From a virus, in the IMG/VR virus record IMGVR_UViG_3300022723_000051, positions 1 through 34,360 of that record: a stretch of 34,360 bases of DNA; one strand, written 5' to 3'. The notes beneath the pieces are model-generated. The model did not search any database. It saw only the letters and a program-made list of their open reading frames with translations, and was not told the origin of the DNA. Positions 11,575 through 25,435 of the stretch are shown here, piece after piece. The first letter of the stretch is position 1. The number at the start of each line of letters is the position of its first letter. The position numbers and the translations under genes were made by a program.

Positions 11575-13271
11575 AGACCGTGCACCGCATGCAACTGCTT
11601 CACCTTCTCGGCCATATCCTCGTACCCGTAATCGACGTTCCGTGACTTCTCCGGCTCGGGCTTAGTATACTCCGCGCCCTTGAGTTCCGACATGATGGCA
11701 TAGCGTAGGGCGGCTACCGCATCCCCTCCGTCCGCTGTGTCATCATCCGGGTCACTGCCTTGGGCTCGACCCGCCAACGGATCGGAATACATCCAGTTGT
11801 CCACCTCCCATAGTAGCCGGCTACCGCGTTGTGGCTCACCGGAACTCGCCGCGTTCATCCCGAGCATCCACTGCATCTTACCTCCGAGCCCACGCCTGAC
11901 GAGCAACGCACGACGACGTAGCATATCGTTGATCCTGTCCGGTCCGGTCCTACGTGAGCCCTTATCCTTGACCGCGGCCGTCGCACGCCACGTCGGGTTG
12001 CGCTCGCCCCAACCACGCTCTAGCGCGCGGTTGAGCTCAGCGGCGTCCGTCGGGTTCGCCGGGTCGCCGTAAACGTGGAGCGCATCAATGCCGTACCGCT
12101 GCAGGATAGCATCGATGAGCTGAGCACGCACGCTCAGGTCCTCACGCTGGCTGAATACCTCGTCGAGTACGTGGATCCTGCCCGCTCGATCTGCGGCGAG
12201 CAGCAGGAAGCTGAACCGCCAGTACCCGTAGTCTATGCCACCGAACGGTCGAAGCTTGCCAGCCGCCAACGCCAACCGGATCTCATCGTCCGTCCATTCC
12301 TGTAGGTTCTCCGCCGACCGGAATTGGATCACTAGGCCCTCGGTCAGCTCTCTCACCCGGTGCTGGCACTCGCGCAGGAACGCGGTAATGCCGATGCGCC
12401 AGATCAGACGTTGGCACGCGTCGATGTCCTGGCCTGTCCATGTCGCTTCGCCCGCCATGATCACCGGCCGACGTATGTCATCGGACTCGGCGCGCCACTC
12501 CCACTCCAGCCCACGGATCGCCGGATGCGGGCCGCTCACTATCCGGTCAGCCAGCCAGTCGGCTCGACCATCGACCAAGCGTGTGAACACCCCGTCCTTG
12601 ATGACGAGATTCTGTATCCCGATCACCGCGCAGTCCATGCTGCCGGCGGGCAAGATCGACTGTGTGATCGTCTGTACTTTCCTGGCTGTCGTGGCCAGCG
12701 TGTCATGGCGACCGTCGATATCATCGAGGATGATTAGGTCAGGTCGCTGCTCCTCGACCTTGAGCCCGCGCTGAGCGGTGTCCAGCCCAATCGCGTCGAC
12801 GGTGAAGCCGCCCGAGGTCATGAGCCGTTCCGACGTCCAGCCCTTCGAATGACCATACTTGGTCAGTCGCCGATCAGCGTGCGCTGGGTAGTGGCGCTCG
12901 ACCGCCGCGCTCTCCAGCAGAGCACCGAGGTTACGGATGTTGTTGTTCGCTTTTTTTTGCGTCTCGGTCACGTACCACGCGTAGCGTCGGCGCTCGGTGA
13001 TACCGAGCATGGCGGTCGCCAGCTCGACACTCGTCGTTTTCCCGCCGTCTCTGGACCACACAGCGACGAGCGGTCTCGGATGGCTCGTCGCGTCCAGGCT
13101 CCACGCCCATTCCCACAGCTCCTCGTGATGCGCAGCGAACTCGAGCGTGACGTGCTTGGGAAAGAGTGTGCGAACCCACTCCTCCCACTCCTCCGGCGCC
13201 GGCTCGCCTACTCGGCGACCGGATGCCCCAGAGTCCACGTAGGCCTGGATCGCCTCGTTAAAGTCGATCAC
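11571..13271 (-). CDS. terL: Terminase large subunit
   Basis: This 566-residue packaging motor ATPase and nuclease cuts and pumps DNA into the procapsid. The ATPase domain has a Walker A-like WSRDGGKTT at about 72-80, the Walker B PDLIILDDID at 177-186 and a coupling segment. The RNase H-like nuclease domain has FGGIDYGYWRFS with Asp347, HVYGDPANP with Asp403, and the late DGGDAVAALRYA motif that holds the third acidic residue. All key residues are present. The GTG at 13271 has no clear Shine-Dalgarno sequence, so translation may depend on the upstream gene ending at 13285. Circular permutation of the assembled sequence would fit headful packaging. Confidence 0.93.
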   Translation of the reverse strand: MIDFNEAIQAYVDSGASGRRVGEPAPEEWEEWVRTLFPKHVTLEFAAHHEELWEWAWSLDATSHPRPLVAVWSRDGGKTTSVELATAMLGITERRRYAWYVTETQKKANNNIRNLGALLESAAVERHYPAHADRRLTKYGHSKGWTSERLMTSGGFTVDAIGLDTAQRGLKVEEQRPDLIILDDIDGRHDTLATTARKVQTITQSILPAGSMDCAVIGIQNLVIKDGVFTRLVDGRADWLADRIVSGPHPAIRGLEWEWRAESDDIRRPVIMAGEATWTGQDIDACQRLIWRIGITAFLRECQHRVRELTEGLVIQFRSAENLQEWTDDEIRLALAAGKLRPFGGIDYGYWRFSFLLLAADRAGRIHVLDEVFSQREDLSVRAQLIDAILQRYGIDALHVYGDPANPTDAAELNRALERGWGERNPTWRATAAVKDKGSRRTGPDRINDMLRRRALLVRRGLGGKMQWMLGMNAASSGEPQRGSRLLWEVDNWMYSDPLAGRAQGSDPDDDTADGGDAVAALRYAIMSELKGAEYTKPEPEKSRNVDYGYEDMAEKVKQLHAVHGL

Positions 13272-13284
13272 AAACGCTCGGTGC

Positions 13285-13770
13285 TCATGTCAGCACCGCT
13301 TCCGCCAACCTACGCCCGATGACACGATTAATCTCGGCTTTCAGCGGCGCCCTGGAATCGTCTGGCACATGAGCCTCGATCGCGGCCCACACCTCATCGA
13401 CGAGCGACTTGTCTACGGCTTCATCGAGCCCGTGCTTCATCAGCATGTCCCACACCCGGGTTTGGTCGGAACCCTTCGGTGGGCCGACGAACTCGAACTC
13501 GACCTTGGCGCTGACGGCGTGCTCGCATTTGGGGCAGGTAAGCGTGACCTCGCGCTCCTCGGTCTGGCGCACCAGACCGAGCGCGAACTCTCGTATCTTC
13601 GGCAAACTCTCTGCGGCGATGTTGCGGAGCGCCTTCTTGACCTCCGAAGGTCGACGCCCGGCGTTGCTCCCATCGTGACCCGGCACGCCACCAGACAGTA
13701 GAGCACCGCCGTGCGGCTGAGGGATCAAGTAGGGCTCGCTATTACGGCCGCTATTACCGTTCTCGCTCAT
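13285..13770 (-). CDS. Putative terminase small subunit or TerL partner
   Basis: This 161-residue protein lies directly upstream of terL, the usual place of the small terminase. After a disordered Gly/Ser N-terminus it has RRPSEVKKALRNIAAESLPK, a helical segment, then LTCPKCEHAV, a CxxC motif that is half of a zinc ribbon. A helical C-terminal half follows. The start was placed at the ATG at 13770 with GAGGTGTG ahead of it. The pattern 'PSEV+.ALR.' followed by a CPKC element is common in phage proteins encoded beside terminases, but I cannot name the family. It is the first gene after repeat array A. Confidence 0.5.
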   Translation of the reverse strand: MSENGNSGRNSEPYLIPQPHGGALLSGGVPGHDGSNAGRRPSEVKKALRNIAAESLPKIREFALGLVRQTEEREVTLTCPKCEHAVSAKVEFEFVGPPKGSDQTRVWDMLMKHGLDEAVDKSLVDEVWAAIEAHVPDDSRAPLKAEINRVIGRRLAEAVLT

Positions 13771-13815
13771 CACACCTCACGGTACTATGTCAGGACGCTT
13801 GCGGTCAACGTAGGG

Positions 13816-13967
13816 CCGCCCCGCCACGGCGTCCTTGCCTTGCCTTGCCGCGCCTTGCCGCGCCTTGCCTCGCCCCGCCAGGCCAGGCCCTGTCGTCCTT
13901 GCCTCGCCTTGCCTCGCCCCGCCTTGCCAGGCCTCGCCAGGCCCCGGCGTCCTTGCCCAGCCCCGCC
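13816..13967. repeat. Pentamer repeat array A (NNGCC units with GTCC spacers)
   Basis: Between the ParB-like gene and the small-terminase gene lies a run of pentamers NNGCC (TTGCC, TCGCC, GCGCC, CCGCC, AGGCC and others). It is interrupted at 13831, 13895 and 13949 by GTCCTTGCC. The blocks contain 11 and 9 pentamers between the markers, giving spacings of 64 and 54 bases, always 5n+4. The leftward transcript would carry it as GGCNN repeats. No gene reads through it. It is not a CRISPR array, since no unique spacers are present. Confidence 0.9.
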
Positions 13968-13980
13968 ACGTGTGCGGCCT

Positions 13981-14652
13981 TCAGGCCGCCGTCATCACGT
14001 CGATGGTCTCTAGCAGACCCGCTAGCTGGGCGAGACGTTCCATGAGCCCCTCGTTCTCGGTGTCGAGCAGGTCGTGCTCGATGAGATGGATGAGCTGATT
14101 GACGAACCACATTTGGTGCTTGCCGCCGAAGCTGCCGATTCCGGCGGCTTGCCGCTTCGTGATGCGCCTGCCCGCCAGGTGCCCGAGCCCTTGCTTGATC
14201 GGGACCATGCCGTGCTTGTCTTTCGCTGTTCGGGTGGCGCGCAGCTTCTGCACTTCGTCTGGTCTCGATCGCAGCGCGGCGGCGACCTGTTCGGGGGTGA
14301 TGCGGTACTCTTCGGCGAGCTGGATGCACCTCACGCGGTCATAGCGGGAGAGGTTGTGCCCGTGTCCGCTGTTCATGTGGATCGCGTCGAGCAGCATCTC
14401 GGCCTCGCCGTCGTATTCGCGCCATTCGACCTTGATCTCGGCGTCGTCACCGAACTCCTTGAGGTGGCCCGTGATGCGGTGGAACCCGTCGGTGACTTTC
14501 TTGCTTTTGCGGTCGGCCACGACGGGCGGCAGGTCTTCGCCAGCCCGCAAAGCGGATCTGATGTGCGCCACATGGGTCGCGTCGACCTTGTGGCGTGGGT
14601 ACAGGTTCTCGTCCAACAGCAGGCTCGCCGCCGGTACTTTCGCGGTGCTCAT
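13981..14652 (-). CDS. ParB/Srx-fold domain protein with HTH
   Basis: This 223-residue protein has an N-terminal ParB/Spo0J-like nuclease or CTPase-fold domain. It shows NLYPRHKVDATHVAHIRSAL, then LPPVVADRKSKKVTDGFHR, where the G-x-HR box is the family signature. A HTH-like region follows (LAEEYRITPEQVAAALRSRP), then ITKRQAAGIGSFGGKHQM. Phage proteins of this type are DNA-binding proteins of uncertain role and need not be partition proteins; no ParA is seen. The ATG at 14652 has a strong GGAGG site. It is flanked on both sides by pentamer repeat arrays, which might be its binding sites. Confidence 0.8.
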   Translation of the reverse strand: MSTAKVPAASLLLDENLYPRHKVDATHVAHIRSALRAGEDLPPVVADRKSKKVTDGFHRITGHLKEFGDDAEIKVEWREYDGEAEMLLDAIHMNSGHGHNLSRYDRVRCIQLAEEYRITPEQVAAALRSRPDEVQKLRATRTAKDKHGMVPIKQGLGHLAGRRITKRQAAGIGSFGGKHQMWFVNQLIHLIEHDLLDTENEGLMERLAQLAGLLETIDVMTAA

Positions 14653-14700
14653 GTCGTTTCCTCCGTGCTTGTGTGCTTGTTCGGTCTACCTGGTCCTGGC

Positions 14701-14892
14701 GTCCTTGCCTTGCCTCGCCTCGCCCAGCCTCGCCTTGCCTCGCCATGCCGCGCCATGGCGTCCTTGCCTCGCCTTGCCGCGCCTGGCCAGGCCTCGCCTT
14801 GCCCAGCCAAGCCCGGCCTCGGCGTCCTTGCCTCGCCTTGCCACGCCTTGCCGCGCCTCGCCTCGCCATGCCACGCCTTGCCGCGCCAGGCC
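14701..14892. repeat. Pentamer repeat array B (NNGCC units with GTCC spacers)
   Basis: This is a second array of the same design, in the gap between the 188-residue gene and the ParB-like gene. GTCCTTGCC markers lie at 14701, 14760 and 14824 (spacings 59 and 64, again 5n+4). They are followed by 10, 11 and 12 pentamers of the NNGCC form, with the last unit before each marker ending GGC. The two arrays share design but not exact order of units, so they were not made by one recent duplication. Confidence 0.9.
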
Positions 14893-14905
14893 GCGGAATG
14901 TGTCT

Positions 14906-15472
14906 CTAGCTGGTGCTGTCGACGCTGACGCTGTCGACGCGGAATCGACCGAACCAGCCGCCTTTTTCCACACGGTAGTCACCGACCCCAACCCGTGTGC
15001 CTGCCGTGTCAAGGACATCGGCGATGATCTCGGGGTCGAGCACGTCGTCGTCGTAGTCGAGCGTGACACCGGCCGCCCACGTATCGAGACGCGGACGCGC
15101 TCGCATCACGCGGGCCTTGCCGACCACCACGGCGCGCTCGTCGATCTCGTACTCGGTCAGGACCTCGCCCGTGCCAGGATCGACCAACAGCGCGCGACGG
15201 TCCGGGTCGATCAGCGCGCCACGTAGGAGCGTGGTCGCGAAATGCTTGCCGATCTTGCGGCCCTTGCCCGCGCTGACCGCCGCCTGGCGGAAGAAGATGC
15301 ACGGTACGAACAGGTGCCCATCATCGTCGCGGTAGGCGGCGAGCTCGGCTTCTTCCTTCGCGTCAGGCACCTTCTTTGCCTTCATCTTCGCGCTTCCGGC
15401 TCGCGTCATGCCCTTGGTCGAGTGCATGAGCAGGGGCGACTCACCCACGACGTGCAGTGTGATCGTTTTCAT
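14906..15472 (-). CDS. Conserved phage protein of unknown function
   Basis: This 188-residue protein begins MKTITLHVVGESPLLMHSTK. It has RDDDGHLFVPCIFFRQAAVS, then AGKGRKIGKHFATTLL, VVVGKARVMRARPRLDTW and the C-terminal RVGVGDYRVEKGGWFGRFRV. From memory, this 'PLLMH ... R.RPR..W ... GDYR...GRF' pattern recurs in phage replication regions, but I know no assigned function. The PLL, DG-x-x-x-P and Gly-rich C-terminal loop layout is loosely like RAMP-fold (Cas7/Cas5) proteins, which is speculation. The ATG at 15472 has GAGG nine bases upstream. It follows the helicase and zinc-ribbon genes in the replication block. Confidence 0.7.
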   Translation of the reverse strand: MKTITLHVVGESPLLMHSTKGMTRAGSAKMKAKKVPDAKEEAELAAYRDDDGHLFVPCIFFRQAAVSAGKGRKIGKHFATTLLRGALIDPDRRALLVDPGTGEVLTEYEIDERAVVVGKARVMRARPRLDTWAAGVTLDYDDDVLDPEIIADVLDTAGTRVGVGDYRVEKGGWFGRFRVDSVSVDSTS

Positions 15473-15560
15473 CGGATTTGTCCTCACTTCTGTCGGATGG
15501 ATGCTCGCTAGGCCGACACGGCCTATGAGCGGGGTTGTACGGTCCTGCGTGCTCTCTATC

Positions 15561-15755
15561 TCATTCGCGGCCCTCCCCTCCGATGGCGGACGTCAAGCCC
15601 GATTCGATCGCGAGATCGTCGGTCACGATCTCGTACGTCGTGCCGCAAGCGCACCGGTGCGTGATCCTGATCGCCGGATCGCCTGTCGTAGCGCGACGTA
15701 TCGGTGGCGCCTTGCCGCATTTCGGGCACCGTGGCGCGCGCTTCATGGCGCTCAT
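15561..15755 (-). CDS. Small zinc-ribbon protein
   Basis: This is a protein of about 64 residues with RCPKCGKAPPIRRATTGD followed by THRCACGTTYEIVTDD. The CxxC ... CxC spacing is that of a zinc ribbon. The ATG at 15755 was chosen; a GTG at 15767 or an ATG at 15746 are alternatives, and the longer open frame upstream is the shadow of the helicase end. The product could bind nucleic acid or a protein partner in the replication block. The roughly 85 bases that follow, to 15473, hold nothing I can name. Confidence 0.6.
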   Translation of the reverse strand: MSAMKRAPRCPKCGKAPPIRRATTGDPAIRITHRCACGTTYEIVTDDLAIESGLTSAIGGEGRE

Positions 15756-15774
15756 GATGTGCTCGACCTGCGCG

Positions 15775-16686
15775 TTACGTCGGCCACAGTCCCTCTTCGT
15801 CTGGCTCGGCTTCACGCCACACTCCGGTCCGGAAGTTGGCTTCGACGGGGATCTCTATCCGGTTCGGGCCTTCGCGGTTCTTGTCGAGGTAGAGCCATGT
15901 GCGAAGTATGTGGCGTTCGTTGGCGTTGCGGCTCTGTTTGCTGTGGTCTAGTAGGATCACCTGATTGGCGTTGCTCTCGATCGCCGTACCGCCCCATAGG
16001 TCGTGCATCGTCGGGCGCCTGTCCCGCTCCCGGCTGGCATAGCGGTTGAGTTGGGACAGCGCGACAATCAGAATCTTGTTGCCGTGGGCGAACCAACGCA
16101 GGGCCTCGCTGATCTCGGTCGCCCTGTCGCTGATCTGATCGGCGGGCGCTTTGATGAGCTGGAGGTGGTCGAGAAAGATCACGGCGCTGCCTTCGTCCCT
16201 AAGCCGCTCACAGGCGGCCATGATGTCATCGAGGTCAGGTGGGCGTTCGTGCTCGTGCACCAACATGCTCCGCATCCCGCCGCCGTTCTGGCTGTACCTT
16301 TCGAGCTCGCCCTTGAGCAGCTTGGTCTTCGCCACGGGATCCCCGTCTAGCCACCTGTGGGGCAGGAAATCGTAGTACCCGAAAGAGGTGACGTTCGCGT
16401 ACACACGACGCTGTAGGCCACGCTTGGGCACCTCCATAGTGACCACGCCGGGCCGTAAATCGTGCTCGGCAGCTCGGCGGGCAAGGTGAAGCATCACCTG
16501 CGTCTTTCCGGCGTTGCTCGCTCCACCAACTACCACGTACCACCAATGGCCGAGCCCGATGCCGCCTGTCTCGTCACACGCTTCGTCCCACGCCGCAAGT
16601 CCGGTGGGTAGGTAGGTCGTGATCGGTTCCATGAGCGAGGAGCCGTAGTCGATGGCCTCGCCGGACCGAAGGATGTCGGAGATCAC
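15775..16686 (-). CDS. DnaB/RecA-fold replicative helicase
   Basis: This is a 303-residue (GTG start) RecA-fold ATPase. Walker A is GGASNAGKT at about 54-62, in the typical DnaB/RepA form, and Walker B is AVIFLDHLQLIKA. They are followed by the sensor segment ILIVALSQLNR, a 'TMHDLWGGTAIESNANQVIL' stretch typical of DnaB C-terminal domains, and RTWLYLDKNREGPNRIEIPV near the end. There is no DnaB N-terminal domain, so this is the motor core only. The GTG at 16686 overlaps the initiator stop (GTGA); an ATG at 16698 is the alternative. It pairs with the adjacent initiator, as loaders and helicases do in other phages. Confidence 0.85.
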   Translation of the reverse strand: MISDILRSGEAIDYGSSLMEPITTYLPTGLAAWDEACDETGGIGLGHWWYVVVGGASNAGKTQVMLHLARRAAEHDLRPGVVTMEVPKRGLQRRVYANVTSFGYYDFLPHRWLDGDPVAKTKLLKGELERYSQNGGGMRSMLVHEHERPPDLDDIMAACERLRDEGSAVIFLDHLQLIKAPADQISDRATEISEALRWFAHGNKILIVALSQLNRYASRERDRRPTMHDLWGGTAIESNANQVILLDHSKQSRNANERHILRTWLYLDKNREGPNRIEIPVEANFRTGVWREAEPDEEGLWPT

Positions 16687-17982: not shown

Positions 17983-18517
17983 CTCCCCAAAGCGTCAGCC
18001 TTAGTCGATCGTCGTAGCCGTAGCCGAAGCCGTCGCCGTAGCCGTAGCCGTAGCCGTAGCCGTAGCCGTCGCCGTAGCCGTAGCCGTAGCCGTAGCCGTA
18101 GCCGTCGCCGGAGCCGTAGCCGTAGCCGTCGCCGGAGCCGTAGCCGGAGCCGTAGCCGAAGCCGTCGCCGTAGCCGTAGCCGTAGCCGTAGCCGTAGCCG
18201 TCGCCGGAGCCGTAGCCGTAGCCGTAGCCGGAGCCGTAGCCGGAGCCGTAGCCGTAGCCGTAGCCGTCGCCGGAGCCGTAGCCGTAGCCGTAGCCGTAGC
18301 CGAAGCCGTCGCCGTAGCCGGAAGCCAAGTCCAAGGGCAATCCGGCCGGAGCCACATCCGCACGCTCGCCGGGTGTCAGGAGATCGTGATCCTCCACCCA
18401 CCGCAGGTAGATAGGCGGTAGTCGCATCAAATCGTCACCGACGGACACTTCGGTGAGCGCATCTAGGCATGCGCCCTTGATCGCCGCCCGGTGAATCAGC
18501 TCGCGCGTCAGCTCCAT
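17972..18517 (-). CDS. Gly-Tyr repeat low-complexity protein
   Basis: This 181-residue protein has a normal N-terminal domain of about 65 residues (MELTRELIHRAAIKGACLDA ... LPPIYLRWVEDHDLL). About 100 residues then follow in which every second residue is Gly, alternating with Tyr, Ser, Asp or rare Phe (GYGYGSGDGYG...), and a short end DDRLRLTLWGGEP. The tail is coded by hexamer repeats. Similar Gly-X tails occur after HTH-like or 'ACxxxL' domains in other phage proteins, from memory; the function is unknown. Such Tyr-Gly tracts can drive self-association. The ATG at 18517 overlaps the previous gene by ten bases. Confidence 0.75.
   Translation of the reverse strand: MELTRELIHRAAIKGACLDALTEVSVGDDLMRLPPIYLRWVEDHDLLTPGERADVAPAGLPLDLASGYGDGFGYGYGYGYGSGDGYGYGYGSGYGSGYGYGYGSGDGYGYGYGYGYGDGFGYGSGYGSGDGYGYGSGDGYGYGYGYGYGDGYGYGYGYGYGDGFGYGYDDRLRLTLWGGEP
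18004..18330. repeat. Hexamer repeat tract coding the Gly-Tyr tail
   Basis: GCCGTA units alternate with GCCGTC, GCCGGA and GCCGAA for over 300 bases. On the minus strand they read Gly-Tyr, Gly-Asp, Gly-Ser and Gly-Phe pairs. The only variable bases are in the second codon of each pair, while the Gly codon is almost always GGC, so the tract can expand by slippage in units of two residues. All frames are open over most of the tract. Confidence 0.9.
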
Positions 18518-19320: not shown

Positions 19321-20046
19321 TCATGGCATTTCACCCGCCGCCCGCAACACATCTGCGTAGTACGTGCGCTCCCAATCGCGCCGGCCCATGCCGGTGCCGC
19401 GCTGCCCGCCAAGCGACGAGACGCGTATGCGGTCCCTATTGAGCGCGCCGCCCATGGACATCGCGTAGGCCGGATGTATCGGCAGCTCGTGGCCGGCGAG
19501 ATACGCCCAAATGTCGGCTGCCGACCACTCGATGAGCGGGGAAAGTGCTTTGTCCGTGCCCGACCCGTGCGCCCTTCGTCCACGCTCGCGACCCGCCGAT
19601 TCGGCGCCGCGGACGCCCGTCATGCGTCGGTCGCCGTGCCGACGCGCAGCCTCACGGAACCCACGCTCCAATGTCCCGGTCGCGTGCGCGCCATCCGCAT
19701 AGACCCGGCAGCGGACCGTGATCTCGTCGTAGCTCGCGTCCGGGTAGAGCGCGAGGAAGCGGTCCCGGACCGCTACGCAGTCAGGGTTAGCGATCGGCTC
19801 GACCCTGACCCACACCAACGGCACATGCGGGGCCACACGCGCCACCAAGTCAGCGAGCACCGTTGAGTCCTTGCCCCACGAAATCGACGCATAGCAGGGC
19901 TCGCGGCCAAAGCGCACAATCTCCAACTCGGCCGCCTCGACGCGCTCGCGGAACCGTGCGAGGCTCGCCCATGCAAGGTCCGATGCCGACACGCGCCGCC
20001 AAGCCTCAATGTCGCCCGGTCGATGCCTGGGGGACTCAATCAGCAT
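19321..20046 (-). CDS. CysH-like PAPS-reductase-fold protein (type IV-B associated)
   Basis: This 241-residue protein belongs to the adenine nucleotide alpha-hydrolase fold. The PP-loop reads YASISWGKDSTVLADLVARV (SWGKDS in place of SGGKDS). Further blocks are VRVEPIANPDCVAVRDRF, RRMTGVRGAESAGRER and LSPLIEWSAADIWAYLAGHE. Phage relatives are often called PAPS reductases, but the catalytic role is not shown. From the published literature I recall that cysH-like genes are a regular companion of type IV-B CRISPR-Cas loci. The ATG at 20046 overlaps csf3 by seven bases, so both are translated together, which supports membership of the same system. Confidence 0.85.
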   Translation of the reverse strand: MLIESPRHRPGDIEAWRRVSASDLAWASLARFRERVEAAELEIVRFGREPCYASISWGKDSTVLADLVARVAPHVPLVWVRVEPIANPDCVAVRDRFLALYPDASYDEITVRCRVYADGAHATGTLERGFREAARRHGDRRMTGVRGAESAGRERGRRAHGSGTDKALSPLIEWSAADIWAYLAGHELPIHPAYAMSMGGALNRDRIRVSSLGGQRGTGMGRRDWERTYYADVLRAAGEMP

Positions 20047-20735
20047 AGGCCCGCCATCTTGCCGCGCACGTCGTCGGTAATGTCGGTGTGGCGCCCGGCG
20101 AGCACTCCGTCGACTACAGTGCTGGGGTGCCAATACGGCGGTGAGACGGGCACACGCTCGACGAGCTCCGGCATGGTGCACCACGCCGTCGGGAGGTTGC
20201 GCCTCGCCCTGCCGCAGGTGACTAACACGCCTATCGGGTCCGTGCCGTCCATGCGCTCGAACGCCCACTCGCGTACAGCGCCGTAGCCGTGGCGCCGAAG
20301 CGCGCCGACGTGCGTCGTGCGGCGCTCCACGAGCTTGCGGACGCCTCTGCGATCACCTACCGCCCACCACTCTACGTACGGCGTCAGCCAGACCGAGACG
20401 GGCAGCATCACATCGCGTCCTGGTCCGCTGCGCGTGTCGACCGGCGCGCTCAGGTAGTCGAGATCCGTGCCGTCCCTGCGCCTCGTCAGATGCTCCCGCG
20501 ACCGTTGCGCGTCGGGCGCGACCTCGGCCGCCGAGCACACGTAAACCTCATGGCCCGCGCACGTCACGGACGCGATCGGCAACCGGGGGCGCACAATGTC
20601 GGCCGCATCACATGTGCGCGTGAGCCTCTGGCCGCGCACGCCCGGCGCACACGACGCTGCGATCGCGTCGAGGTGCAGCGGCTCGGAGAGCGCGACCGGA
20701 GCAGACAAGTACGCGCGCACCCTCAGCACCGACAT
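20040..20735 (-). CDS. csf3: Csf3, Cas5-family subunit of a type IV-B complex
   Basis: This 231-residue protein has the marks of Cas5-family Csf3. The first strand and loop read RVRAYLSAPVALSEPLHLDA, where PLHLD is typical. A YVEWWAVGDRRGVRKLVERR segment leads into the Gly-rich RAMP loop THVGALRRHGYGAVREWAFE. A C-terminal part follows with RARRNLPTAWCTMPELV and VPVSPPYWHPS. In type IV complexes Cas5 caps the 5' end of the guide RNA. The start at 20735 lies four bases before the end of csf2, with GGAG ten bases upstream. I see no nuclease motif. The assignment was made from pattern and gene order. Confidence 0.8.
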   Translation of the reverse strand: MSVLRVRAYLSAPVALSEPLHLDAIAASCAPGVRGQRLTRTCDAADIVRPRLPIASVTCAGHEVYVCSAAEVAPDAQRSREHLTRRRDGTDLDYLSAPVDTRSGPGRDVMLPVSVWLTPYVEWWAVGDRRGVRKLVERRTTHVGALRRHGYGAVREWAFERMDGTDPIGVLVTCGRARRNLPTAWCTMPELVERVPVSPPYWHPSTVVDGVLAGRHTDITDDVRGKMAGLC

Positions 20736-22948: not shown

Positions 22949-23010
22949 ATGAACCCCTCGAAAAGCATCCGCGTCGTTTCGTGCGGGTCCGGGAGGTCGT
23001 GGCGGTTCAT
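22945..23010 (-). CDS. 21-residue micro-gene coupled at both ends
   Basis: The frame MNRHDLPDPHETTRMLFEGF-M begins at 23010 in an ATGA with the methyltransferase stop and ends at 22945 in a GTGA with rusA. Its only support is this exact coupling, which may exist just to hand ribosomes from one gene to the next, or it may encode a small peptide. Confidence 0.4.
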   Translation of the reverse strand: MNRHDLPDPHETTRMLFEGFM

Positions 23011-25109
23011 GGGGCGGCCGTCAGAGCACCTACGATCTGAGCCGCCCACGTCGGCGGCACGGCGTTGCCCACCTGCCGAAACCGGCTCGTCTTCGATCCC
23101 TGGAACGGATAGTCGGGGCGGAAGCCTTGCAACACGGCGGCCTCGGCGAGCGTGACCTTGACGCTGTCCGTCTCGTACGTGCTTGTGTCGTGGTGCCCGG
23201 GTGGTGCGATCTTGCCTTGCCCGCATGATCTCACGACCGTCGTGGCGGGGCGGGTGCGGGTCCATCGGATGTCGTTCTTCGCGTCGCCCGTAAAGATTGT
23301 GGCCGCGGGTTCATCGAGACCGCGGATGGTCGCACGCTCTTGATTGTTATGCCGCAGCCGCCACAGGTCCACGCCGCGCACCAATTTCTCGCTGCATATC
23401 GTGCGCGAGGGTTCGGTGTCGGGCACCACGCGCGCCTTAGCTCTCTCGCTCTGGCGCGGATCCATCGCTCGCGAGCCGGGCGTCCACCCGAGCGCCTCAG
23501 CCATGCTCACCCACGGCAGCCGCTCGCCGAACAGGCACGGCTCGGGACACTCCGCGTGCGTCGGTTCGGCGACCCTGACCCCGCCCCGGTGCGCCAGCAG
23601 GAACGCACGAAGCCGTGTCTGGGGCACACCGTAATCGGCAGAGCACAGTTTCAGCGCGATCGCGTCATAGCCCCACGACCGGAGCACGTCGGCCATGTGC
23701 TCCCAAATCGGCAGACACGGCGGCACCTGCTCGCACGCGATCCAAGTCGGGCGACAATGATGTGCCCAACGCAGCGGCTCCAAGATCAACGGCGTGCGAA
23801 CGTCGTACCACGGCCCGTTCCGCAGCTCGTCGCACCAGCCGTCTCGTGCGCTGGCGATCGCCGAGTGCAGGCGGGGCAGGTCCTCGTCGCCCTCGCGTTT
23901 GCCGGCCATGCTGAATGGCTGACAGTTATGCACGACAATGCCGTCCGCGACAAAGGAGTGGTCCTCCTCCACCTCTAAGTCGTAGACCGTGGCGTCCCCG
24001 GCATCCTCCACGCTTCGGACGAGCATCCAGGCGTGTCCGTCACGCCGATGCACATAGCGCCTTCTGGGATTCGGCCCCCGGATTGTGATTGCGTACCATG
24101 GCCGCTGGTTTACAACGCGACCGTCGTACATCTCCTTGGTCGGGGGCGGGTCGTTGCGTACCTCGCTAACATCACGGCCCAGGGAGTTGGCGAGCAACCG
24201 CACCCCACAAGCCAACAGCCTGCTAACGGTCACCGCCTTGTGGGCCGATGGCCCGATCCGGTGCGCGTCACCCGCCAGATATCCATCAAGGAGTGCGCTG
24301 CGGGTAGCCTCATCGGCACCGAGCGCCCACGCCGGCATGGTCTTGTCTGCGGCCCCACACCCAAACCCATTAATCAACCACCGGGCTATCTCCGAGACTC
24401 CGTAGAGCGTGTACCTGGCGCACCCATCCTGCTCTGAGGCAATCGCCCCCGAGCAGCGCGACTCGAACTCCTGGCGCTTGTCGTCGCCAATGGCCCAGCA
24501 CACCTCCCCGCGATCCGAGTCGGCCCATCCGTCAGCCAACCACCTCCCAACGAGCCAAGGGTCCACCGGCCACTCCACTGTATCGCTTGGCACCGCAGTG
24601 GGCATCGCCCACCGCCTGCCTGCGGAGCGTTGGGCGGGGGCCCACTCGGGTTCCGTCCACATTTCCTTCCAAATGCGGCCACCGCCACGCCACCTCTTGT
24701 AGTCCCGAGTCCAGATGGGGTGGTCAGGTGTGGCAACCAACTCTGCGGTCCCTTGTCCCTTGATGGAGACTACGGGAGCCACCTTGCTCCCGGTCCGCAC
24801 CACTCTACGCCAGCGCCCTCGGTGGGTCAGCGCCAGGTCCCCTGCCCGTACGTCCGCGATGGGGACCACCCCACGGCGCGTCAGCACGGGCGTATCCCCC
24901 CGGAAGCAGGGCGGGCTGGCGACGAGTCCGCCCAACTCGCCCACCGCGTCCGCCGGGTATGCAGCGACGTCGGTCCGCACCGTCATGTGTCCAGCGGCTA
25001 CCCGAGTGCGGCAGGCGTCGGCGTCTAGCTCCAGGCCCACGGCCCGCAAGCCGAGTGACGCCATCCCCTCCGACCACCCTCCGGGGCCAGCGAACAGGTC
25101 GAGCAACAT
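23007..25109 (-). CDS. C5 cytosine DNA methyltransferase interrupted by an intein
   Basis: This 700-residue precursor has methyltransferase parts at residues 1-67 and 396-700. Motif I is LLDLFAGPGGWSEGMASLGL. Motif IV, SPP-CQPFSMAGK, is split by an intein just before the catalytic Cys. An ACEQVPPC segment stands in for motif VI, QTRLRAFLLAHR is motif VIII, and FRQVGNAVPPTWAAQIVGAL is motif X. The spliced enzyme would be about 372 residues, normal for the family, and would methylate phage DNA at cytosine, probably against restriction. The ATG at 25109 shares a base with the upstream stop. Confidence 0.93.
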   Translation of the reverse strand: MLLDLFAGPGGWSEGMASLGLRAVGLELDADACRTRVAAGHMTVRTDVAAYPADAVGELGGLVASPPCFRGDTPVLTRRGVVPIADVRAGDLALTHRGRWRRVVRTGSKVAPVVSIKGQGTAELVATPDHPIWTRDYKRWRGGGRIWKEMWTEPEWAPAQRSAGRRWAMPTAVPSDTVEWPVDPWLVGRWLADGWADSDRGEVCWAIGDDKRQEFESRCSGAIASEQDGCARYTLYGVSEIARWLINGFGCGAADKTMPAWALGADEATRSALLDGYLAGDAHRIGPSAHKAVTVSRLLACGVRLLANSLGRDVSEVRNDPPPTKEMYDGRVVNQRPWYAITIRGPNPRRRYVHRRDGHAWMLVRSVEDAGDATVYDLEVEEDHSFVADGIVVHNCQPFSMAGKREGDEDLPRLHSAIASARDGWCDELRNGPWYDVRTPLILEPLRWAHHCRPTWIACEQVPPCLPIWEHMADVLRSWGYDAIALKLCSADYGVPQTRLRAFLLAHRGGVRVAEPTHAECPEPCLFGERLPWVSMAEALGWTPGSRAMDPRQSERAKARVVPDTEPSRTICSEKLVRGVDLWRLRHNNQERATIRGLDEPAATIFTGDAKNDIRWTRTRPATTVVRSCGQGKIAPPGHHDTSTYETDSVKVTLAEAAVLQGFRPDYPFQGSKTSRFRQVGNAVPPTWAAQIVGALTAAP
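23925..24908 (-). mobile_element. Intein with LAGLIDADG endonuclease domain
   Basis: This 328-residue intein lies at residues 68-395 of the methyltransferase precursor. It starts with Cys68 (CFRGDTPVLTRRGVVPIADV) and has block B at ELVATPDHPIW with the TxxH-like pair. Two LAGLIDADG-type motifs (WLVGRWLADGWA and RSALLDGYLAGDA) and blocks F and G (ATVYDLEVEEDHSFVADGIV then VVHN) follow. The next extein residue is Cys396, the methyltransferase catalytic Cys. All splice-site residues are present, so it should be active in splicing, and the endonuclease motifs keep acidic residues. Confidence 0.92.
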
Positions 25110-25435
25110 CACAGGCGGATCCGCCTGTGATCCGTGAACACGGAGAAGATTGCACCCATGGTGCCCGTCCCCTCCTGCAAAGCCAGCTCGCACGCGAGCC
25201 GCTCCGTCAGCGGCTCCAGCGCCATGATCCACCGCTCGGCATCCTCGTGGTCCAGGGTCATGACGATCTCGTCGCGGATGCGCTCCATCGATTGCAGCTG
25301 GAAGCGGAGCGTCCTGCGGCGGCGCTGGTTGTCGAAATCGTAGCCCTCGACCTGGCGAAGTACGTCCTCAAGGCCACGCGCGTCGAACTCGGGCCGGATC
25401 GCCCCGCAGCGGCGGCATTCAGCGATGCTCTTCAC
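25109..25435 (-). CDS. Small protein with CxxC motif
   Basis: This 108-residue protein begins VKSIAECRRCGAIRPEFDAR, with one CxxC pair. It is then mainly helical and charged (RRRRTLRFQLQSMERIRDEI) and ends with FSVFTDHRRIRL. The GTG at 25435 overlaps the stop of the upstream gene (GTGA) and was chosen over an upstream in-frame start. It precedes the methyltransferase. No family was recognised. A regulatory or partner protein of the recombination block is possible. Confidence 0.6.
   Translation of the reverse strand: MKSIAECRRCGAIRPEFDARGLEDVLRQVEGYDFDNQRRRRTLRFQLQSMERIRDEIVMTLDHEDAERWIMALEPLTERLACELALQEGTGTMGAIFSVFTDHRRIRL

What the first reader, a model, noticed from the sequence alone, without database searches (positions are those of the whole stretch)
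13816..14892. Two interrupted pentamer arrays flanking a ParB-like gene
Both intergenic gaps next to the ParB-like gene are filled with NNGCC pentamers punctuated by GTCCTTGCC. All four measured marker spacings (64, 54, 59, 64) equal 5n+4, so the rule is kept while unit order and number differ between arrays. Two pentamers equal about one helical turn. They may be binding sites for the ParB-like protein, an origin or partition element, or structured RNA leaders.
Basis: seen in the sequence. Interest (0 to 1): 0.75.

Follow-up and report, generated by a model that had tools for sequence, protein, structure and literature searches.

The report
Phage guide-RNA arrays beside CRISPR-like protein
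The odd five-letter repeats are almost certainly a phage's guide-RNA genes: arrays of GGC-NN units next to a small CRISPR-backbone-like protein, as in the recently described 'VIPR' system that phages use to find and silence DNA of rival phages.

Summary
In detail: both gaps hold runs of 9-13 NNGCC pentamers, with GTCCTTGCC spaced 64, 54, 59 and 64. Surrogate windows never exceed a run of 5. The interpretation needs replacing. Read on the gene strand the arrays are GGC-NN repeats, which are the vrRNA guides of VIPR, described in a 2026 preprint (PMC13142463). It is a homologue of the SUSP1 phage protein at the locus the preprint describes (BLASTP 9e-15, same PHROG). It is predicted to have a Csm3/Cas7-type RAMP fold (all 50 listed PDB matches are CRISPR RAMP structures). 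In phages found by array DNA alone, 46 of 50 records carried this family, and 388 of 394 arrays lay on its strand. The ParB-like gene is a real partner: 24 of 31 homologues found by protein search had the RAMP gene and/or arrays beside them. It is best read as the accessory protein, not the reason for the arrays. The 5n+4 rule is general: 138 of 191 register-changing gaps between arrays are 5n+4. Near relatives keep the ParB-like gene but carry different guides. Targets were not established. New member of a very recently described kind.

The parts
14906..15487 (-). Vipr-like RAMP protein, 193 aa (GTG start; frame open up to 15592)
   Evidence: phrog_4652 E=1.8e-25; BLASTP to the SUSP1 vipr-locus protein 9e-15; AlphaFold2 pLDDT 91.6; Foldseek PDB: top 50 all CRISPR RAMP structures, best E 5e-6
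14824..14892 (-). Array 2 guide unit 1: 13 GGCNN repeats + GGAC; NN = CT GC AA GT AT GA GA GC AA GT AA GA AA
14760..14823 (-). Array 2 guide unit 2: GCCGA + 11 GGCNN + GGAC; NN = GA CG TT TG AA GA CT CA GC AA GA AA
   Evidence: a variant copy is in relative L060 with the first 8 NN identical
14701..14759 (-). Array 2 guide unit 3: GCCAT + 10 GGCNN + GGAC; NN = AT GC AT GA AA GA TG GA GA AA AA
13981..14652 (-). ParB-like protein, 223 aa; proposed VIPR accessory (Vap)
   Evidence: phrog_1033 E=1.4e-11; predicted fold matches Noc/ParB/KorB, best E 3e-6; 24 of 31 homologues sit beside vipr and/or arrays
13949..13967 (-). Array 1 leading partial unit: 3 GGCNN repeats + GGAC, preceded by CACACGT; same in relatives
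13895..13948 (-). Array 1 guide unit 2: GCCGG + 9 GGCNN + GGAC; NN = GG CT GA CT AA GG GA AA GA AA
13831..13894 (-). Array 1 guide unit 3: GACAG + 11 GGCNN + GGAC; NN = AG CT CT GG GA AA GC AA GC AA AA AA

Best explanation
The arrays are the guide-RNA (vrRNA) genes of a phage-encoded VIPR-type system. On the minus strand the order is vipr (14906-15487), array 2, ParB-like accessory gene, array 1. Each unit of 10-13 repeats ending in GGCAAGGAC would be one guide. Several small RAMP subunits coat the RNA, each holding one GGC; the NN pairs are displayed and read DNA with one skipped base between pairs. Bound target DNA is silenced; the ParB-like DNA-binding protein would assist. The likely targets are genes of rival phages or mobile elements. 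Shown here: array structure, RAMP homology and predicted fold, linkage, strand bias, guide turnover in relatives. Inferred from the preprint on SUSP1: RNA production, coating, the 1-nt skip code and repression. Unknown: this phage's host and targets.
For: GGCNN repeats match the GGY/NN vrRNA repeat of PMC13142463, and each complete unit has 10-13 NNs, within the stated 9-16. The SUSP1 locus used there shows GGYNN runs in the two gaps around its vipr locus, and the window protein is homologous to that gene (same PHROG). Predicted fold is a CRISPR RAMP. IMG/VR records picked by array DNA alone: 46 of 50 carry phrog_4652, 0 of 14 control genomes; of 14 loci without a long array, 1 carries it (L040, which has a broken array). 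388 arrays on the strand of the nearest vipr, 6 opposite; 93% within 1 kb. Relatives L060/L014 and L036 share the ParB-like gene (96-98% DNA identity over the shared stretch) but have other guides; one unit shared with L060 keeps its first eight NNs while the scaffold Y changes C to T. NN usage fits codon positions 1-2 on the sense strand best (+0.23 bits per NN; the other five phases are negative), as expected if the skipped base is the wobble base. Twenty-four of 31 ParB-family loci are VIPR loci.
Against: No RNA data. No convincing target: two guides have 23 of 24 NN letters matched over 12 repeats somewhere (L190, L195), but in unrelated genes after scanning very large collections, so chance is not excluded. 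A 373-guide search of held sequence showed no clear excess for the 1-nt skip over shuffled guides. Units lack the structured 3' tail described for SUSP1. 45 of 165 array loci show no vipr on the held stretch, and the 22 of these whose full records were searched (plus four already negative) had none; some are contig ends or simple repeats, others unexplained.
Confidence: 0.92

Rival explanations
1. The arrays are DNA sites: a centromere (parS-like) or operator array bound by the ParB-like protein, used for plasmid-like partition or autoregulation.
For: The gene between the arrays has a ParB-like predicted fold; arrays flank it in kin.
Against: Arrays are far more widely shared with the RAMP gene than with ParB. 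Every second dinucleotide is free to vary and guides are swapped between near relatives. 388:6 strand bias relative to vipr is odd for a DNA site. No ParA was seen among the window genes tested against PHROGs, but not every ORF was tested.
Confidence: 0.04
2. The arrays are structured RNA leaders or cis-regulators of the downstream genes.
For: They lie upstream of the ParB-like gene and of 13285-13773; one unit folds better than shuffles (z -4.8).
Against: Folding is not shared: z of the five units -4.8, +0.3, -2.2, -3.0, -1.4. No Rfam match. Number and content of units change between relatives.
Confidence: 0.02
3. Neutral expansion of a GC-rich microsatellite by replication slippage.
For: Pentamer period; a few loci in the same search are plain repeats of one unit (L110, L115, L152).
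Against: Slippage makes identical units; here NN varies and GGC is fixed, arrays co-occur with one protein family and one strand.
Confidence: 0.01

Closest known systems
VIPR systems (Viral Interference Programmable Repeat), Escherichia phage SUSP1 / Pseudomonas fulva prophage, PMC13142463
   Same: Phage-encoded ~20 kDa RAMP protein, accessory gene next to it, intergenic tandem GGY/NN guides on the same strand; direct sequence homology of the RAMP protein.
   Different: Scaffold is almost pure GGC (SUSP1 mostly GGT); guides run head to tail with only GGAC+GCCNN between them, no evident structured tail; the accessory is ParB-like, whereas the gene next to the SUSP1 vipr is phrog_5926.
Class 1 CRISPR-Cas backbone RAMPs (Csm3/Cas7)
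   Same: Predicted fold: the 50 listed PDB matches are CRISPR RAMP structures, E from 5e-6.
   Different: TM mostly about 0.5-0.6 and 9-16% identity; guides are pentamer arrays, not repeat-spacer arrays; no cas gene identified among the window genes tested.
ParB / Noc / KorB DNA-binding proteins
   Same: Predicted fold of 13981-14652 matches Noc, ParB and KorB (E from 3e-6); phrog_1033.
   Different: Sequence relation is weak (PDB profile E 0.004; no Pfam match for the window protein); genomic context is VIPR.

Membership tests
VIPR | RAMP-type Vipr protein of about 20 kDa, homologous to known Viprs | tested here: met
   BLASTP 9e-15 to SUSP1, phrog_4652, RAMP fold
VIPR | Intergenic array of about 9-16 YNNGG repeats, GGY fixed and NN variable, beside vipr and on its strand | tested here: met
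   complete units carry 10-13 NNs, the leading unit of array 1 only three
VIPR | Accessory vap gene at the locus | tested here: met
   ParB-like gene; adjacency in 24 of 31 homologue loci; its function is untested
VIPR | Conserved structured 3' tail after the repeats (as in SUSP1) | tested here: inconclusive
   Only GGCAAGGAC is constant; no shared fold. The preprint reports variable array architectures across types, so this may not define the whole family
VIPR | NN read with a 1-nt skip on DNA targets in rival elements | tested here: inconclusive
   Codon-phase bias agrees; target searches gave no convincing target
VIPR | vrRNAs expressed and bound by Vipr | not testable with these tools
   Needs sRNA sequencing and pull-down
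Class 1 CRISPR-Cas | CRISPR repeat-spacer array and cas operon | tested here: not met
   No repeat-spacer structure at the locus; repeats are 5-nt units; no cas gene identified among the genes tested
ParB/parS partition | ParA partner and conserved palindromic parS sites | tested here: not met
   No ParA among the genes tested; the only inverted repeat found in 13700-15000 has arms 678 nt apart; arrays follow the RAMP gene rather than ParB

The most novel reading that the evidence does not exclude
A ParB-associated VIPR clade in which guides are packed head to tail without structured tails, and a single four-nucleotide unit (a -1 step in register) marks where one guide ends and the next begins. 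The ParB-like clamp would load at or spread from the RNA-bound target to strengthen silencing. The -1 step as a boundary signal is seen across many loci (138 of 191 register-changing gaps) and could be a general rule for how the RAMP filament is terminated.
Probability: 0.25. Interest if true: 0.75.

Novelty: new member of a known kind. Interest (0 to 1): 0.6.

Why it matters
VIPR rests so far on one preprint. This window, found blind from raw sequence, is independent support for the system: the arrays alone predict the RAMP gene in unrelated phages. It adds a ParB-like accessory supported by unbiased linkage, close relatives with swapped guides, and a register rule (5n+4) for guide boundaries. 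These give concrete handles for how guides are delimited and how a DNA-binding partner might reinforce RNA-guided silencing.

Tried and rejected
Decoding targets: three 9-NN patterns in viral contigs gave 1, 3 and 0 hits, and one pattern in genome contigs gave 15. The L189 hit lies in an endolysin-like ORF (identified by eye, not by a profile search) but does not extend past nine NNs; L190 and L195 reach 23 of 24 letters in unrelated genes. All judged compatible with chance. A 373-guide search over held loci was uninformative. Host assignment failed: terminase, portal and RecT searches gave mixed or no relatives. No sigma-70-like promoter or terminator-like site in 13200-15800, no tRNA, no Rfam match, no PADLOC match. 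The GTCCTTGCC search also returned chance matches without arrays; these served as controls. Conserved 3' AA units were considered as a fixed tail: only mildly enriched overall.

Full report
What is there. The window is a 34,360-base viral record. Surrogate windows never exceed a run of five units against thirteen here. All neighbouring genes run on the minus strand, so the RNA sense is GGCNN, and each unit ends in GGCAAGGAC. The order on the minus strand is 14906-15487, array 2, ParB-like gene 13981-14652, array 1, then 13285-13773.

Lead and independent tests. A full-text search brought up PMC13142463, a 2026 preprint on VIPR: phage RAMP proteins that use RNAs of alternating GGY/NN motifs to recognise DNA, reading the NN pairs with one skipped base. 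I tested the fit. The window's 193-aa protein matches the SUSP1 phage protein at the corresponding locus (26% identity, E=9e-15) and the same PHROG. SUSP1 itself shows GGYNN runs in the two gaps around that locus. An AlphaFold2 model from 98 relatives (pLDDT 91.6) has CRISPR RAMP structures, mainly Csm complex and type VII subunits, as all of its 50 listed PDB matches.

Linkage without using the protein. IMG/VR records were collected by array DNA alone. Of 50 such records, chosen mostly for multiple matches or length, 46 encode phrog_4652, and 0 of 14 control genomes do. Of 14 loci caught by a marker match without a long array, one does (L040, which has a broken array). Over all held loci 388 arrays are on the strand of the nearest vipr and 6 are opposite, 93% within 1 kb. 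Not every array locus has a vipr: 120 of 165 do on the held stretch, a count that includes a few loci fetched by vipr similarity. Vipr-less array records that were then checked in full had none, but these had been picked for lacking it. Some of the remainder are contig ends or plain single-unit repeats.

The ParB-like gene. Its predicted fold matches Noc, ParB and KorB. Thirty-one viral relatives were found by protein similarity only; 21 have a vipr hit and 18 have arrays within the fetched flanks, 24 have at least one, all on the same strand. Several repeat the window's layout of vipr, array, ParB, array. Some ParB-VIPR loci (L211, L213, L225) use a different five-base scaffold.

Guide turnover. 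Contigs L060/L014 and L036 carry a nearly identical ParB-like gene (96-98% DNA identity over the shared stretch; predicted protein 100% identical in the tblastn match) but other guide units, and different sequence follows array 1. One unit shared with L060 keeps its first eight NNs while its scaffold changes C to T, the pattern expected if NN carries the information. NN usage in this clade fits codon positions one and two on the sense strand better than any other phase; significance was not computed and AA/GA richness contributes.

The 5n+4 rule. Between consecutive GGYNN runs in other loci, 138 of 191 register-changing gaps are 5n+4, and in 48 of the 67 loci with such gaps this is the commonest residue. 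The window's GGAC is one form of a four-base boundary unit; GGCA is another, seen in 36 loci.

What is not shown. There is no RNA evidence, no established target and no host. Target searches gave only matches compatible with chance.

Noticed in passing
L211, L213, L225 (beside ParB-like and vipr genes): VIPR-like loci whose intergenic repeats keep a five-base period but with a GC-NNN-like scaffold instead of GGY-NN.
   Followed up: partly
L069, L077, L105, L106, L111, L116, L132, L138 and others: Viral contigs with varied GGYNN arrays but no detectable phrog_4652 gene in the record; either divergent Viprs, fragments, or guides carried without the protein.
   Followed up: partly
window 13831-13835 versus L060, L036, L029: Array 1 is a boundary of relatedness: near relatives share the ParB-like gene up to the array and differ after it, suggesting recombination at the array.
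   Followed up: no
window 18013-18320: About 51 copies of the hexamer CGTAGC (88% match); a similar stretch occurs in L038.
   Followed up: no
window 23007-25232: C5-cytosine DNA methylase that appears to be interrupted by an intein (Hint/intein-splicing matches).
   Followed up: no
window 19321-20268: PAPS-reductase-like gene, reported by PHROGs as an auxiliary or takeover gene.
   Followed up: no
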